Under the pieces are notes generated by a model. It worked only from the letters and a program-made list of their open reading frames with translations, ran no database searches and was not told the origin of the DNA. A stretch of DNA of 41,342 nucleotides from a virus. The stretch spans positions 1 through 41,342 of IMG/VR virus record IMGVR_UViG_3300009537_000056, one strand, 5' to 3'. How positions within the stretch are numbered: the first letter of the stretch is position 1; each line of letters opens with the position of its first letter. Both the position numbers and the translations under genes were made by a program. This document shows, piece by piece, positions 1,178 to 7,275 of the stretch.

Positions 1178-2167
1178 ATGGAAGAGAAGGAAATACCTGC
1201 GGTAATTGGGAAGATAAGGGAACAATTTGGTGAAGGATCAATTCAATTGATTGGGGAATCCCTGAACTTGGATGTAGAGGTTATTCCTACAGGATCATTT
1301 GCACTCAATAAGGCGCTCGGAGTTGGGGGTGTACCCAGAGGGAGAATCACAGAAATCTTCGGACCCGAGGGTAGTGGGAAGACAACGCTTTCACAACACT
1401 TAGTTGCCAATGCCCAGGAACAAGGATTGCTTTGTGCCTATGTTGACATGGAGCACGCTCTGGACCTTGGATATGTTGGTAGAACTGGTGTTAACGTTGA
1501 GGAACTCTATATCTCACAACCCGATACTGGGGAACAAGCACTTGAAATCGTAGAGTCACTTGTCAGAAGTCAGGAGTTTGGGCTTGTAGTAGTTGACTCA
1601 GTTGCAGCCCTGGTTCCTCACAAAGAAGTTAACGAGTCTGACATGGGCGACTCGGTGATGGGATTGCAGGCTCGGCTTATGAGTCAGGCTATGCGGAAAC
1701 TGACAGGAGCCATTAAAAAGAGCAATACTGCGGTGGTCTTTACTAATCAGCTTCGGCAGAAGATCGGGGTGATGTTTGGAAACCCTGAAACAACCCCCGG
1801 TGGTATGGCATTGAAATTCTATGCTGCCGTTAGAATAGACCTGCGCAGAAGAGAGCTTCTGAAGTCAGGACAGACAATCATTGGTAGCAAGATTCGAGCT
1901 AAGGTTGTCAAAAATAAAGTAGGGGCACCTTTTCAAGAAGCGGAGTTTGAGATTCGTTTCAACGAAGGTATATCAATCTACGGGGAAGTTCTCACCTACG
2001 GTGTAGAGACTGGTGTGATCGAGCAGAAGGGAGCTTTCTACTACTACGGAGAAGAAAAGCTTGGACAAGGAAAAGAAACGGCCAAAATGACTTTGCGAGA
2101 TAATGAGCCGTTGTTTGAAGAAATCTACGCCGAAGTTTGGAAGACGTTGGATGAAAAAAAGGAATAA
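1178..2167 (+). CDS. recA: RecA recombinase (phage-encoded)
   Basis: The 329-residue product is a full-length bacterial-type RecA core. It binds single-stranded DNA as an ATP-dependent filament and drives strand exchange; in phages it supports recombination-dependent replication or repair. Visible landmarks: N-terminal IREQFGEGSI; Walker A GPEGSGKTT near residue 62; YVDMEHALD; Walker B LVVVDSVAALVP; the L1/L2 DNA-binding region through MGLQARLMSQAMRKLTG, FTNQLRQKIGVMFGNPETTPGG and ALKFYAAVR; and KVVKNKVGAPF near the end of the core. The acidic C-terminal tail of cellular RecA is shorter. ATG 1178 is preceded by GAAAGGA. A paired inverted repeat lies immediately upstream and a tRNA begins on the base after the stop codon. 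The gene sits alone between tRNAs rather than in a replication operon. Confidence 0.97.
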   Translation: MEEKEIPAVIGKIREQFGEGSIQLIGESLNLDVEVIPTGSFALNKALGVGGVPRGRITEIFGPEGSGKTTLSQHLVANAQEQGLLCAYVDMEHALDLGYVGRTGVNVEELYISQPDTGEQALEIVESLVRSQEFGLVVVDSVAALVPHKEVNESDMGDSVMGLQARLMSQAMRKLTGAIKKSNTAVVFTNQLRQKIGVMFGNPETTPGGMALKFYAAVRIDLRRRELLKSGQTIIGSKIRAKVVKNKVGAPFQEAEFEIRFNEGISIYGEVLTYGVETGVIEQKGAFYYYGEEKLGQGKETAKMTLRDNEPLFEEIYAEVWKTLDEKKE

Positions 2168-2258
2168 GCACACGAGGCCAAATGGTGCGGCGTCCGTTTT
2201 ATGAACGGTTAACCCTCTGATAAGGGGAGTATAATGGGTTCGAATCCCATCGTGTGCA
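2168..2258 (+). tRNA. Unusual 91-nt tRNA, isotype uncertain (class II with TAT loop, or Ile-GAT with inserted hairpin)
   Basis: Acceptor GCACACG/CGTGTGC with discriminator A, D arm GCC-AAATGGTGC-GGC and T arm ATGGG-TTCGAAT-CCCAT are all sound. Between them are two hairpins. The first (CCGT-TTTATGA-ACGG) would give anticodon TAT with a long class II variable arm. The second (CCCT-CTGATAA-GGGG) is a textbook Ile-GAT anticodon loop followed by a normal short variable region, in which case the first hairpin is an insertion of about 18 nt. The gene starts on the base after the recA stop codon. CCA is not encoded. Confidence 0.75.
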
Positions 2259-2270
2259 CTAGGAGAAAAC

Positions 2271-2627
2271 ATGGGATTACATAAGGTAACCCCTGTAGGA
2301 AATCCCGGAGATGTCTACTGGTTCTATGGGGGATCAGGGTCGGGAAAGACAAATATTGCAATCCGATTTGACATCCCAAATAAGATTGTGCTGGACTCGG
2401 ACGCTCTGCGGGAAGTTTGGCAAAATGAAGATTTTTCCGATGATGGAAGAATGAAGCAAAATCTTTGGCTTGCTCGATTAGCAGGGATCATAACAGCACA
2501 AGGTTTCAACGTGGTAATCGCATCAGTGTGTCCTTTTGAGGATAAGAGCCCTTTCGAAGAGATTATTCCTTGGGTTACTTGGATCGAAGTGAGAGGACCA
2601 CATACGAAACCCACAGACTGGAAGTAA
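2271..2627 (+). CDS. APS-kinase-like P-loop kinase, short form (118 aa)
   Basis: The product resembles the N-terminal two thirds of adenylylsulfate kinase (CysC family), which phosphorylates adenosine 5'-phosphosulfate to PAPS. Residues 16-27 carry Walker A (WFYGGSGSGKTN). The following LDSDALREVW corresponds to the LDGDNVR motif, and FSDDGRMKQNLWLARLAGIITAQGFNVVIASVCPF matches the FS-DR-NIRR-G-VA...G-IV---FISPF block in order. The protein ends soon after, at about 118 residues instead of the usual 180-200, so the C-terminal substrate-lid region is missing. Related small phage P-loop kinases can act on nucleotides or polynucleotide 5' ends, so the substrate is not certain. The ribosome binding site AGGAG lies just after the tRNA end. 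A sulfotransferase-like gene (a PAPS user) lies 650 bases downstream. Confidence 0.7.
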   Translation: MGLHKVTPVGNPGDVYWFYGGSGSGKTNIAIRFDIPNKIVLDSDALREVWQNEDFSDDGRMKQNLWLARLAGIITAQGFNVVIASVCPFEDKSPFEEIIPWVTWIEVRGPHTKPTDWK

Positions 2628-2629
2628 CG

Positions 2630-2701
2630 TGCGGGGTGGAGCAGCGGTAGCTCGGTAGGCCCATAACCTACAGGTCGTCGGTTCGATTCCGACCCCCGCT
2701 A
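2630..2701 (+). tRNA. tRNA-Met (CAT), initiator-like
   Basis: The sequence closely follows bacterial initiator tRNA: TGCGGGG/CCCCGCT leaves a T-T mismatch at position 1-72, and TGGAGCAGC...GGTAGCTCG gives the A11-T24 pair typical of tRNA-fMet. The anticodon stem GTAGG/CCTAC has loop CCCATAA (anticodon CAT), T arm GTCGG-TTCGATT-CCGAC, discriminator A. Unlike canonical initiators the stem lacks three consecutive G-C pairs, and position 33 is C instead of T. Confidence 0.88.
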
Positions 2702-2709
2702 CTGCGTTG

Positions 2710-2760
2710 CCCGATGCACGCTGAAGTTATCGGGGCGAGTGACTGATACTAGTGGCTCGC
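2710..2760 (+). other. Two tandem hairpins in inter-tRNA spacer
   Basis: CCCGAT (2710-2715) pairs with ATCGGG (2729-2734), and directly after it GCGAG (2735-2739) pairs with CTCGC (2756-2760). These hairpins fill the spacer between the two tRNA-Met genes. They are plausible RNA-processing or spacing elements; no function can be assigned. Confidence 0.35.
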
Positions 2761-2766
2761 TACCAT

Positions 2767-2839
2767 CCTGGGGTAGCTCAGTTGGCAGAGTGCCTCCTTC
2801 ATAAGGAGCGTGTCGGCGGTTCGAATCCGCCCCCCAGGA
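2767..2839 (+). tRNA. tRNA-Met (CAT), elongator type
   Basis: Acceptor CCTGGGG/CCCCAGG, D arm GCTCAGTTGGCAGAG, anticodon loop TTCATAA (anticodon CAT), and T arm GGCGG-TTCGAAT-CCGCC, discriminator A. A CAT anticodon could also be modified to read AUA as Ile2; the sequence alone does not settle this. CCA not encoded. Confidence 0.93.
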
Positions 2840-2843
2840 CTAT

Positions 2844-2915
2844 GCTCTTGTCGTTCAATGGATAGGACGGAACTTTCCTAAAGTTCTGATGCAGGTTCGA
2901 GTCCTGCCAGGAGCA
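2844..2915 (+). tRNA. tRNA-Arg (CCT)
   Basis: Acceptor GCTCTTG/CAGGAGC, D arm GTTCAATGGATAGGAC, anticodon stem GAACT/AGTTC with loop TTCCTAA (anticodon CCT, codon AGG), T arm GCAGG-TTCGAGT-CCTGC, discriminator A. CCA not encoded. Confidence 0.94.
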
Positions 2916-2925
2916 CTCCTAGTTG

Positions 2926-2983
2926 CTTTGACAGTGGGTTCGCTAGGCCATGGATATCGATTCGATTCCACCGTACCTCAAAG
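2926..2983 (+). other. Imperfect hairpin in spacer between the two tRNA-Arg genes
   Basis: CTTTGA (2926-2931) and GTGG (2934-2937) pair with TCAAAG (2978-2983) and CCAC (2968-2971). The enclosed bases include TTCGATTCC, like a T-loop, so this may be a decayed tRNA. No intact cloverleaf can be drawn. Confidence 0.3.
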
Positions 2984-2999
2984 GAAGAAACTGTCGCTT

Positions 3000-3071
3000 G
3001 CCCTCGTCGCCTAATGGATGGGTTCCAAGCTTCTAACTTGGCTTGTGTGGGTTCGAATCCTGCCGAGGGCT
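3000..3071 (+). tRNA. tRNA-Arg (TCT)
   Basis: Acceptor GCCCTCG/CGAGGGC, D arm GCCTAATGGATGGG, anticodon stem CCAAG/CTTGG with loop CTTCTAA (anticodon TCT, codon AGA), T arm GTGGG-TTCGAAT-CCTGC with two wobble pairs. The discriminator is T, unusual for arginine. CCA not encoded. Confidence 0.92.
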
Positions 3072-3083
3072 CTAGGAGATGAC

Positions 3084-3272
3084 ATGGCTCAAGCAGAAAA
3101 GAGAGTAGATCAACAAACAGTGGTAACTGTTGAGGCGAAAGATCGTTCGGCATTTATCATAGTAAACGAACGGAGGGGGTTAATTAAAGGAACATTTAGG
3201 GTTGCTCCTGGAAAATGGGATCATCTACGAGGAGCAATCGAAGCCTTCATTACTAAGATGGAGGAAGAATGA
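3084..3272 (+). CDS. Small conserved-looking protein of unknown function (62 aa)
   Basis: The start is taken at ATG 3084 because TAGGAGA lies 6-12 bases upstream. A longer in-frame start at 3018 would run through tRNA-Arg and is rejected. The product (MAQAEKRVDQQTVVTVEAKD...) alternates short strands and ends in an amphipathic segment (DHLRGAIEAFITKMEEE). The middle part, SAFIIVNERRGLIKGTFRVAPGKWDHL, suggests a small beta-beta-alpha fold. No family is recognised. The next gene starts one base after this stop codon, so the two are probably translationally coupled. Confidence 0.7.
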   Translation: MAQAEKRVDQQTVVTVEAKDRSAFIIVNERRGLIKGTFRVAPGKWDHLRGAIEAFITKMEEE

Positions 3273-3273
3273 C

Positions 3274-4017
3274 GTGGGTGTTATCATAGATTCTCCATAT
3301 AAGCCGTGGCAAAAATTGGGAATTGGTGATCCTGGGATTCTTATCTATACAATGGCTCGGGTAGGGACAAATACTACCCGATATACATTGGAACAGATGG
3401 AACTTCAAGTATCAACGTCTCATTATAGCGTCCAGGATGAACAAGAGTTTGGACTTGACCCGTATGGATTTTTTGATCAAATTCGAATTGACCGTGAGAG
3501 GGAATGGAAAATCATTAGTTTGATGCGGGACCCAATAGCTAGAAATATATCAACATTTTTCTGGAGTATCCAAAAGTATTATAATGAGCACCCGCAAACA
3601 TTCAAACCCCAGATGGTTACGGCTTTCTTGGAGAACTATCCTTTTCACGATACACCGATTACATGGTTTGAACGAGAGTTGGTTCCATTTTTGGACTTTA
3701 ACATATATGAGCATCCATTTGATAAGGCTGCGGGGTATACAATCTACGATACCCCTTATGCCCAATTACTGCTCCTTAGAACAGAGCAGTTGACGGAAAT
3801 AGGGTCAGAAGCTTTCGCAAAGTTCTTTGATCGTCCGGGAGTTGAAGTTAAGCACCGGAGCTATGGAGCAAAGAGATTTAGTGGGGGGGCGTATAAGGAT
3901 TTTCACGAGAAAGCAAAATTCTCGAAAGAGTACCTGGATCGTATGTACGATAATGACCACGTGAGGTATTTTTACAAGGAAGATGAAATTCAAGCCTTTC
4001 GTGAACAGTGGTCGTAA
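3274..4017 (+). CDS. Sulfotransferase-like protein (247 aa)
   Basis: The product resembles PAPS-dependent sulfotransferases and the related capsular-polysaccharide-synthesis family. ILIYTMARVGTNTTRYTLEQ near the N-terminus fits the 5'-phosphosulfate-binding loop (family pattern M-KVGS-T), and ISLMRDPIARNISTFFWSI near residues 82-100 fits the 3'-phosphate-binding motif R-P--R--S-F. A C-terminal helical region rich in F, Y, K and E follows (FHEKAKFSKEYLDRMYDNDH). GTG 3274 is chosen as start because GGAGG lies at 3261-3265 and the preceding gene stops at 3272; the longer TTG start at 3202 overlaps that gene fully. If active it could sulfate a host surface glycan or a phage fibre. The nearby CysC-like gene would supply PAPS. 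The pairing is inference. Confidence 0.72.
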   Translation: MGVIIDSPYKPWQKLGIGDPGILIYTMARVGTNTTRYTLEQMELQVSTSHYSVQDEQEFGLDPYGFFDQIRIDREREWKIISLMRDPIARNISTFFWSIQKYYNEHPQTFKPQMVTAFLENYPFHDTPITWFERELVPFLDFNIYEHPFDKAAGYTIYDTPYAQLLLLRTEQLTEIGSEAFAKFFDRPGVEVKHRSYGAKRFSGGAYKDFHEKAKFSKEYLDRMYDNDHVRYFYKEDEIQAFREQWS

Positions 4018-4018
4018 T

Positions 4019-4100
4019 GCTGGCGTGCTGGAATTGGTATACGGGGTAGTCTCAAAAACTACTGGCTTTGGTCTTGAGGGTTCGAGTCCCTCCGCCAGCA
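4019..4100 (+). tRNA. tRNA-Leu (CAA)
   Basis: Acceptor GCTGGCG/CGCCAGC, leucine D loop GAATTGGTATACGG, anticodon stem GTAGT/ACTAC with loop CTCAAAA (anticodon CAA), long variable arm, T arm GAGGG-TTCGAGT-CCCTC, discriminator A. It starts two bases after the sulfotransferase-like stop codon. CCA not encoded. Confidence 0.95.
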
Positions 4101-4104
4101 CCTT

Positions 4105-5556: not shown

Positions 5557-7275
5557 ATGACACGAGTTATCGGCCTTTCCGGGGACGCCCCTCGTCAGAA
5601 ACGTGGGCAACTTGCTGTAATTCAGAGAGCAGCAGAATCAGAGTATAAGCCTATTTTTCCGACTGACGTTCAGCAACTCTTAGATCAAGAAGTATACCCG
5701 AGCCTACAAAAGTTCCTACTTTTCTGGGTGATGATGGATGCTGTGAAGGTTCACGGATACATCCGATCAGCCATGAGTGCTATTGGGCGATCTACGGTTG
5801 GTGCGTGGTGGATGCTGTCCAAGCACGAAGAATGGGGAACCACTGCAACCGAGGAACAGCGCCTAGCATTGCTTGAGTTCTACAGTAGCCGTAATCGAGA
5901 ATGGGACAACATCAAGGACTACCAGAATCTTGCGTACAAACTTATCATTGGAGCACAATACTTAAAGTTCTTTGGGCAAGTAGCGTTTTCGATTAACCGT
6001 AACAACGCTGGTCAGCCGATTGGCTTCGATCATCTGCCAGGACTTGTTGTGCCCAATGTTGATGAGTTTGGTTATTTCAAGAATCCGTCTTTCGTACAAT
6101 ACCCAACAAAGGACCCACGAGTGCGCACTGAATTCTCCAGTCCAGAAGATATCATCTACATCACTAATCCTGATTGGGAAGGTTCTCCGCTCGGGGGTTC
6201 CGACATTGAGGCGTTGACTGAGTTTACGTTGCCGTTGGACATTTATTTGCAGACTGCGGCACGTGAATATATGAAAAATACTAACCGACCAGAGTTAATC
6301 TACATGCTTCCGCAGGATATCTCGGATGAAGCCTTTGATACGTTTGTTGCTCTATTAAATAGTAAATATGGTGGTCCGTTGAATCGGGGACGAAACCCAG
6401 TAGCTGTCCAGGGCGAACTCAAAGTAGAACGTATTGATGATCTACCGGACGGACTCCCATATCAACAATCTCGAAAGGATGCACGAGACGAATCCCTAGC
6501 TGCTTCCGGTGTTAGTGGTCCAGTGCTTGGCCTGTCTGACACAATGAGCAGCGCAAATATCAGAGAATCTCGTCGCCAGTTCCATGAGACCACGATGGAA
6601 CCGCTCTTCCAACTATTGGAGGGTGGATTTTATGAGCAGGTTCATATTCGTGAGTTTGATATTGTGGAATGGATTTTGAAGTTCAACAACCCAGACTTTA
6701 TGACTGCTGTTGAGCGAGCAACCGTTCATATGCGCTATATTGAAAATGGTGTTTTGAATCCTAATGAAGCTCGTGAAGACCTTGGTCGTGAACCACGAGA
6801 GGGTGGAGATGAATACGTTGAATCGAAACAGCCTGGGGGTAATCCACAGGGGTCTCCTCCAGAAGGTCGGGAAGAAGAACCAGATGATCCTTCCAACACA
6901 GGAGAACCAACTGATGATGACCAGGACCCGCCTCGGGGAGACCAACACGATGATGAGACAGATCGTGCGCTAGCTGAGTTATCTGGTAATTCTGAGAATA
7001 CTCTGGTTGAGTTAACGAGAAAGTCAGAACGTGTTTCAACTAAAGTAGCGGGATCAACAAGAGATGCTTTGGTCAATGAATTTTTAGCATGGCGTAAATT
7101 TGCAATCAACCGTGTTCAAAAAGGAATGCGTCTTCGCCGTTACTTCACTGAGAAAATTCCTGAGGATATAGCTTTTCTTGTTCAGGACCAATTGGAGGAC
7201 GCTGATAGCGTTGAAGTAGTAGAGAGTATATTTAGTAATCTGTTAGACACTATCCAGGAGCTAAACAATGAGTAG
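5557..7275 (+). CDS. Portal protein (572 aa)
   Basis: The product matches the HK97/SPP1-type portal family, the dodecameric ring at the capsid vertex through which DNA is packaged and to which the connector binds. Seen in order: an N-terminal arm, a long stem/wing region (YIRSAMSAIGRSTVGAWWML, then AYKLIIGAQYLKFFGQVAFS), a clip-like segment with the motif DIIYITNPDWEGSPLGGSDI, and VSGPVLGLSDTMSSANIRES, followed by the family signature YIENGVLNPNEAREDLGREP. The last 140 residues are a low-complexity acidic Pro/Gly/Asp linker and then a coiled-coil-like tail (ALVNEFLAWRKFAINRVQKG), longer than in minimal portals. ATG 5557 is chosen over GTG 5551 because GAGGTG sits 4-8 bases before it. It opens the structural operon. 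Confidence 0.92.
   Translation: MTRVIGLSGDAPRQKRGQLAVIQRAAESEYKPIFPTDVQQLLDQEVYPSLQKFLLFWVMMDAVKVHGYIRSAMSAIGRSTVGAWWMLSKHEEWGTTATEEQRLALLEFYSSRNREWDNIKDYQNLAYKLIIGAQYLKFFGQVAFSINRNNAGQPIGFDHLPGLVVPNVDEFGYFKNPSFVQYPTKDPRVRTEFSSPEDIIYITNPDWEGSPLGGSDIEALTEFTLPLDIYLQTAAREYMKNTNRPELIYMLPQDISDEAFDTFVALLNSKYGGPLNRGRNPVAVQGELKVERIDDLPDGLPYQQSRKDARDESLAASGVSGPVLGLSDTMSSANIRESRRQFHETTMEPLFQLLEGGFYEQVHIREFDIVEWILKFNNPDFMTAVERATVHMRYIENGVLNPNEAREDLGREPREGGDEYVESKQPGGNPQGSPPEGREEEPDDPSNTGEPTDDDQDPPRGDQHDDETDRALAELSGNSENTLVELTRKSERVSTKVAGSTRDALVNEFLAWRKFAINRVQKGMRLRRYFTEKIPEDIAFLVQDQLEDADSVEVVESIFSNLLDTIQELNNE

What the first reader, a model, noticed from the sequence alone, without database searches (positions are those of the whole stretch)
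2271..4017. Possible PAPS module: APS-kinase-like gene and sulfotransferase-like gene between tRNAs
The 118-aa P-loop protein has the ordered motifs of CysC-type APS kinases (GGSGSGKT, LDSDALR, FSDDGR, ISPF-like), and the 247-aa protein carries sulfotransferase-like phosphate-binding motifs (MARVGTNTT, RDPIARNIS). CysC makes PAPS and sulfotransferases use it. A phage carrying both could modify its own or the host's surface glycans, which might affect adsorption or exclusion. The kinase lacks the usual C-terminal third, so it may have changed substrate.
Basis: partly seen in the sequence, partly recalled or inferred. Interest (0 to 1): 0.65.

Follow-up and report, generated by a model that had tools for sequence, protein, structure and literature searches.

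The report
Phage sulfotransferase gene in tRNA array
This phage carries, inside its tRNA gene cluster, a gene whose protein looks like an enzyme that sticks sulfate groups onto sugars; its relatives carry three such genes each, but the small kinase next to it is cut too short to be the enzyme that makes the sulfate donor, so the proposed two-gene 'module' does not hold.

Summary
The two genes are real. P0002 (3274-4017, GTG start, 247 aa) belongs to Pfam NKWYS (PF10364, 59 bits; cut-off 25). Forty relatives show a complete sulfotransferase signature: K/R-V-G-S loop, a near-invariant His, and R-x7-S (R85 in 41/41, S93 in 39/41). A confident AlphaFold model (pLDDT 87.6) matches PAP-bound SULT1C3 first in the PDB, weakly. 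Two longer records of the same phage lineage (capsid about 68% identical) each carry three NKWYS paralogues in 28-31-gene tRNA arrays; all seven proteins form one clade. In several other phages the gene sits beside glycosyltransferase, sugar-epimerase, capsid or terminase genes. So P0002 is most likely a PAPS-dependent sulfotransferase, probably of a glycan; substrate and activity are inferred.

P0001 (2271-2627, 118 aa) has an APS-kinase-type core (Pfam 27.5 bits; best PDB fold match CysC) but ends before the lid that carries the catalytic Lys and adenine-stacking Phe. It also lacks a conserved Arg and shares the GRxKQ signature of short phage kinases (phrog_10255). The kin lack it, and no ATP-sulfurylase or PAPS-reductase-family gene was found. 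A 'PAPS module' is therefore not supported; host PAPS is the likelier donor source.

The parts
3274..4017 (+). NKWYS-family (PF10364) sulfotransferase-like protein P0002, 247 aa, GTG start
   Evidence: Pfam NKWYS 59.2 bits; AF2 pLDDT 87.6, pTM 0.86; Foldseek PDB top hits SULT1C3 with PAP; motif columns
3349..3378 (+). 5'-phosphosulfate-binding-loop-like motif, codons for residues 26-35 (TMARVGTNTT)
   Evidence: K/R at residue 29 in 39 of 39 aligned sequences, G/A at 31, S/T at 32
3421..3423 (+). codon of His50, candidate catalytic base
   Evidence: His in 37 of 38 ungapped sequences, usually H-x-H; analogy with HS2ST His142 is inference
3526..3552 (+). 3'-phosphate-binding motif, residues 85-93 (RDPIARNIS)
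   Evidence: R85 41/41, S93 39/41; aligns with VRDPVTRAIS of heparan sulfate 3-OST in a profile search
2271..2627 (+). truncated APS-kinase-like P-loop protein P0001, 118 aa
   Evidence: Pfam APS_kinase 27.5 bits, PRK05541 48.1 bits, phrog_10255 29 bits, all limited to about residues 13-94; AF2 pLDDT 83.6, best PDB fold match CysC
3084..3272 (+). 62-aa ORF of unknown function, stop overlapping the P0002 ribosome-binding region
   Evidence: no Pfam or NCBIfam match and only E=0.16 in PHROGs; AGGAG 5' of ATG
2168..2259 (+). tRNA, anticodon UAU, with long variable arm
2630..2702 (+). tRNA-Met(CAU), starts 2 bases after the P0001 stop codon
3000..3072 (+). tRNA-Arg(UCU)
4019..4102 (+). tRNA-Leu(CAA), starts 1 base after the P0002 stop codon; NKWYS genes also lie beside tRNA-Leu genes in the kin

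Best explanation
P0002 is a PAPS-dependent sulfotransferase of the NKWYS family, acquired once by this phage lineage and expressed with its tRNA array. It probably binds PAPS through the R29-V-G-T loop (5'-phosphosulfate) and R85...S93 (3'-phosphate), uses His50 as base, and moves sulfate onto a hydroxyl of a surface or virion glycan, changing how phage or host surfaces are recognised. The donor PAPS would come from the host. P0001 is a separate passenger: a shortened P-loop protein with an APS-kinase-type core that cannot work by the known APS kinase mechanism. Shown: family, motifs, fold, lineage conservation, no coupling to an APS kinase. Inferred: PAPS use, glycan substrate, biological effect.
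For: NKWYS 59.2 bits; all 41 aligned homologues match NKWYS, 13 also match Sulfotransfer_1 and 9 Sulfotransfer_2 at E<=0.05. Motif columns R85 41/41, S93 39/41, K/R29 39/39, H50 37/38. Ten of 11 PDB sequences hit by the profile are sulfotransferases, best E=0.0016, through the R-x7-S motif. AF2 model pLDDT 87.6; the first two Foldseek hits are SULT1C3 bound to PAP, prob 0.97-0.99; several viral proteins named sulfotransferase among the BFVD hits. Kin records G001 and G002 (capsid 67-68%, portal 47-52% identical) each hold three paralogues in tRNA arrays; the seven array proteins form one clade, 89/77 support, 89% of bootstrap trees. Neighbours elsewhere: GDP-mannose dehydratase and GDP-fucose synthase, epimerases and glycosyltransferases.
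Against: No member of NKWYS has a solved structure or a described activity that I could find. The Foldseek match is weak in global terms (E=7e-3, TM 0.36). P0002 has Arg, not the usual Lys, in the 5' loop (8 of 39 aligned sequences do); from general knowledge tyrosylprotein sulfotransferases also use Arg there, so this is not fatal. No glycosyltransferase was recognised next to P0002 itself, though most of the window's genes were not scanned with Pfam. The substrate is unknown.
Confidence: 0.62

Rival explanations
1. A two-gene PAPS module: P0001 makes PAPS from APS and P0002 uses it.
For: Both genes lie within 1.75 kb; P0001 keeps the P-loop Lys, LDxD Asp44, Arg47, Phe55 and Arg60, the counterparts of CysC Lys456, Asp480, Arg483, Phe492 and Arg497; best PDB fold matches are APS kinases.
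Against: The lid segment with Lys562, Arg559 and Phe576 is absent, and even a Cys-to-Ser change in the lid abolishes activity in CysC. Arg93 is replaced by Ser, Asn63 by Gln, Asp59 by Gly. Kin with three sulfotransferase genes have no APS kinase; none of the window and two kin records has an ATP-sulfurylase or PAPS-reductase/CysD-family match. Of 25 viral records scanned only one, a 177-kb record, has both families, far apart.
Confidence: 0.06
2. P0001 is an active short kinase of the phage phrog_10255 type acting on another small acceptor (sugar, sugar alcohol or nucleotide).
For: Shares D54, G59, K62, Q63 and C87 with 130-147-aa phage proteins, unlike CysC at D54, G59, K62 and Q63; the tree joins them (91/68, rough); PHROG 10255 'kinase' E=1.5e-6.
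Against: Still about 20 residues shorter than those proteins and lacking their invariant Arg93; branch length 3.67, so its place is unsure. The profile of full-length CysC-type proteins scores it higher (61.5 against 42.6 bits).
Confidence: 0.3
3. P0001 is a decaying remnant of an APS-kinase-like gene, cut at its 3' end by the tRNA-Met gene.
For: The stop codon lies 2 bases before tRNA-Met; long branch, loss of Arg93 and of the C-terminus; absent from the kin.
Against: Frame intact over 118 codons, good Shine-Dalgarno-like site, P-loop and acceptor-site motifs kept; confident core model.
Confidence: 0.4
4. The array sulfotransferase-like proteins act on tRNA or the translation machinery rather than on glycans.
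For: In the window and both kin every copy found lies inside the tRNA array, some overlapping tRNA genes by about 10 bases.
Against: The same family in other phages and in bacteria lies in loci with no tRNA genes, beside glycan or virion genes; I know of no tRNA sulfotransferase.
Confidence: 0.05

Closest known systems
Pfam NKWYS, PF10364 ('putative capsular polysaccharide synthesis protein')
   Same: P0002 scores 59.2 bits against a cut-off of 25.1; all 41 aligned homologues match.
   Different: The family has no described activity in the papers held. The sulfotransferase assignment and the tRNA-array setting are added here.
Glycan sulfotransferases (heparan sulfate 3-OST and 2-OST, SULT family)
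   Same: R-x7-S 3'-phosphate motif, basic-residue loop before helix 1, His between the two motifs, first PDB fold hits PAP-bound.
   Different: Only weak global similarity (TM 0.36); shorter protein; Arg instead of Lys in the 5' loop of P0002.
APS kinase (CysC, TIGR00455, PF01583)
   Same: P0001 has the P-loop, LDxD, Arg47, Phe55 and Arg60 and folds as the CysC core.
   Different: 27.8 bits against the TIGR00455 cut-off of 138.7; no lid and no second APS-stacking Phe.
phrog_10255 short phage kinases (130-147 aa, DWDFSxxGRxRQ signature)
   Same: Shares the substrate-helix signature DFSxxGRxKQ.
   Different: P0001 is shorter still, with LDSD instead of NADD-like, and no Arg93.

Membership tests
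NKWYS (PF10364) | score above the curated cut-off | tested here: met
   59.2 bits against 25.1
PAPS-dependent sulfotransferase | basic residue in a 5'-phosphosulfate-binding loop between strand 1 and helix 1 | tested here: met
   K 31, R 8 of 39; R29 in P0002, after strand 21-25 and before helix 32-41
PAPS-dependent sulfotransferase | 3'-phosphate-binding R-x7-S | tested here: met
   R85 41/41, S93 39/41; aligned with heparan sulfate 3-OST VRDPVTRAIS
PAPS-dependent sulfotransferase | sulfotransferase fold | tested here: inconclusive
   best PDB hits are SULT1C3 with PAP, prob 0.97-0.99, but E=7e-3 and TM 0.36
PAPS-dependent sulfotransferase | PAPS binding and sulfate transfer | not testable with these tools
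   needs purified protein
APS kinase (CysC) | P-loop, LDGD-like motif, Arg483/Arg497/Phe492 equivalents | tested here: met
   K26, D44, R47, F55, R60
APS kinase (CysC) | lid with Lys562, Arg559 and Phe576 equivalents | tested here: not met
   P0001 ends before this segment; no KGLYKKAR or FTGI region
APS kinase (CysC) | score above the NCBIfam TIGR00455 cut-off | tested here: not met
   27.8 bits against 138.7; the Pfam PF01583 cut-off is met, 27.5 against 21.1
PAPS module (kinase plus sulfotransferase as one unit) | the two genes kept together in related phages | tested here: not met
   two kin records with three sulfotransferase genes each and no APS kinase
Polynucleotide kinase | best structural match to PNK | tested here: not met
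   APS kinases rank first; Pnkp1 appears at rank 38. The model used an alignment of APS-kinase-like proteins, which favours this outcome.

The most novel reading that the evidence does not exclude
A lineage of tRNA-rich phages has recruited and multiplied a family of previously uncharacterised sulfotransferases inside its tRNA array, and uses them with host PAPS to sulfate host or virion glycans during infection, with paralogues of different specificity.
Probability: 0.35. Interest if true: 0.6.

Novelty: new member of a known kind. Interest (0 to 1): 0.4.

Why it matters
It gives a testable function (PAPS-dependent sulfation) to a Pfam family now named only by a guess, and shows a phage lineage that kept and multiplied such genes in its tRNA array. 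If phages sulfate glycans, this would be an unusual route to changed adsorption, superinfection exclusion or virion surface chemistry. It also warns that short 'APS kinase' hits in phages need not mean PAPS synthesis.

Tried and rejected
Single-sequence scans of viral contigs with P0001 and P0002 found nothing, and P0002 has no tblastn hit in named phage genomes; alignments were needed. The region just upstream of the portal gene in the close kin showed no kinase or sulfotransferase, because in the kin the tRNA array lies tens of kilobases away on the other strand. The polynucleotide kinase idea: APS kinases rank first, though the alignment favours that. Placing P0001 by tree: long branch, unsettled bootstrap. 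A link to other PAPS-pathway genes: no ATP-sulfurylase or PAPS-reductase-family match in the window or the two kin. Literature on NKWYS, PF10364 and phage sulfotransferases: none held. The host was not identified.

Full report
Observation. The window is a 41,342-base virus record of IMG/VR. P0001 (2271-2627) and P0002 (3274-4017) are present with all the motifs quoted, each preceded by a Shine-Dalgarno-like AGGAG or GGAGG and flanked by tRNA genes. P0001 reaches Pfam's APS_kinase cut-off over residues 15-92; P0002 is far above the cut-off of Pfam NKWYS.

What P0002 is. tblastn on plasmids found NKWYS proteins in bacteria, one in a GDP-mannose/GDP-fucose cluster. An alignment of these (A1) retrieved 5 viral and 39 bacterial loci, and a second alignment (A2) 18 viral loci. 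In the 41-sequence alignment A4 every member matches NKWYS; 13 also match Sulfotransfer_1 and 9 Sulfotransfer_2 weakly, at E up to 0.05. The conserved positions are those of a sulfotransferase: a basic residue at 29 (31 Lys, 8 Arg; Arg in P0002), Ser or Thr at 32, His50 (37 of 38), Arg85 (41 of 41) and Ser93 (39 of 41), spaced R-x7-S. A profile search of PDB sequences returned heparan sulfate 3-O-sulfotransferases first, aligned on exactly this motif (E=0.0016), and ten of its eleven hits are sulfotransferases. AlphaFold gave a confident model (pLDDT 87.6, pTM 0.86) whose first two PDB matches are human SULT1C3 with PAP bound (E=7e-3 and 1e-2, prob 0.97 and 0.99, TM about 0.36). The viral structure library gives three unnamed giant-virus proteins with strong scores and then, weakly, several proteins named sulfotransferase. 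In HS2ST the catalytic base is thought to be His142 (PMC6094399); that His50 plays this part here is my inference.

Lineage. The window's portal protein found kin. The record behind L005 is the same as that behind L012, a 101.7-kb record (G001) holding three NKWYS genes among tRNA genes; G002 (75 kb) has the same arrangement. Both are kin of the window phage: major capsid 67-68%, portal 47-52%, plus the tape-measure and other structural genes. G001 has 33 predicted tRNA genes in all, 31 of them in the main array; G002 has 31, of which 28 are in the main array. A tree puts the seven array proteins in one clade (89/77 support; 89% of bootstrap trees), with paralogues that split before G001 and G002 parted for at least two pairs. 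So the gene entered the lineage once, as far as these data go, and was duplicated. G006, a closer relative (capsid 82%), is a fragment without the array.

Other settings. In viral loci outside this lineage no tRNA genes were found around the gene, except two in L071. There it stands after a capsid gene and before a lysozyme-like gene (L058, L059), beside epimerases and glycosyltransferases (L061, L064), or between glycan-type genes and a terminase-like gene (L066). This points to glycans of the cell surface or the virion rather than to tRNA.

What P0001 is. Its core aligns with CysC, and the modelled fold (pLDDT 83.6) is closest to M. tuberculosis CysC (E=1.4e-6). Mapped on the CysC structure paper (PMC4373884), it keeps the counterparts of Lys456, Asp480, Arg483, Phe492 and Arg497, but it ends before the lid (552-581) with Lys562, Arg559 and Phe576; lid closure is essential for activity there. 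It has Ser93 where the other 23 sequences of the alignment nearly all have Arg, and Gly59, Lys62 and Gln63 where CysC has Asp, Glu and Asn, much as the short phage proteins of 130-147 aa matching phrog_10255 do. The tree joins it to these only roughly, on a very long branch. It is therefore not a working APS kinase by the known mechanism; an altered short kinase and a remnant remain about equally likely.

No module. APS kinase is absent from G001 and G002 and from all but one of the other viral records scanned. In the exception, a 177-kb record, the full-length kinase lies at 72 kb and the two NKWYS genes at 28 and 135 kb. The window, G001 and G002 have no ATP-sulfurylase or PAPS-reductase/CysD-family match. 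All are possibly incomplete records, so absence is not proof.

Verdict. Observation confirmed; interpretation half right. The sulfotransferase is the finding of worth, a new member of a known enzyme kind in an unusual and lineage-conserved place; the kinase is a side note.

Noticed in passing
window 2168-2259: tRNA with anticodon UAU and a long variable arm (class II shape), unusual for an isoleucine tRNA; its charging identity is unclear.
   Followed up: partly
L012 4581-4656 and record G002 5576-5650: Kin phages carry a tRNA with anticodon CUA (called tRNA-Pyl; probably amber-reading) and one with a four-base anticodon call.
   Followed up: no
window 1178-2167: Full-length bacterial-type RecA gene inside the tRNA array, not detected in the two long kin records G001 and G002.
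   Followed up: partly
L115, L127, L131, L133, L136, L148, L151, L161, L167, L168 and others: A common family of short (130-147 aa) phage APS-kinase-like proteins with signature DWDFSxxGRxRQ, NAD instead of DGD and no CysC lid; liable to be mis-annotated as APS kinase.
   Followed up: partly
L012 5782-6741 and L013 5734-6744: One NKWYS paralogue in each kin has a related N-terminal extension of about 75-90 residues absent from the others.
   Followed up: no
L012 2821-3513 with tRNA at 3504; L013 1116-1805 with tRNA at 1796: Sulfotransferase-like coding sequences overlap the start of the following tRNA-Leu gene by about 10 bases, which suggests joint transcription.
   Followed up: no
L061 7143-7661 and L064 1366-1860: Small P-loop-like proteins (GxEGSGTxMLAEA) without a Pfam match directly or nearly before the NKWYS gene in two phages; possibly another sulfotransferase-like family.
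   Followed up: partly
L002 2342-5323 and L003 87-1913: Large proteins made of many VGITD-type repeats of about 30 residues, two genes upstream of the portal gene in kin phages.
   Followed up: no
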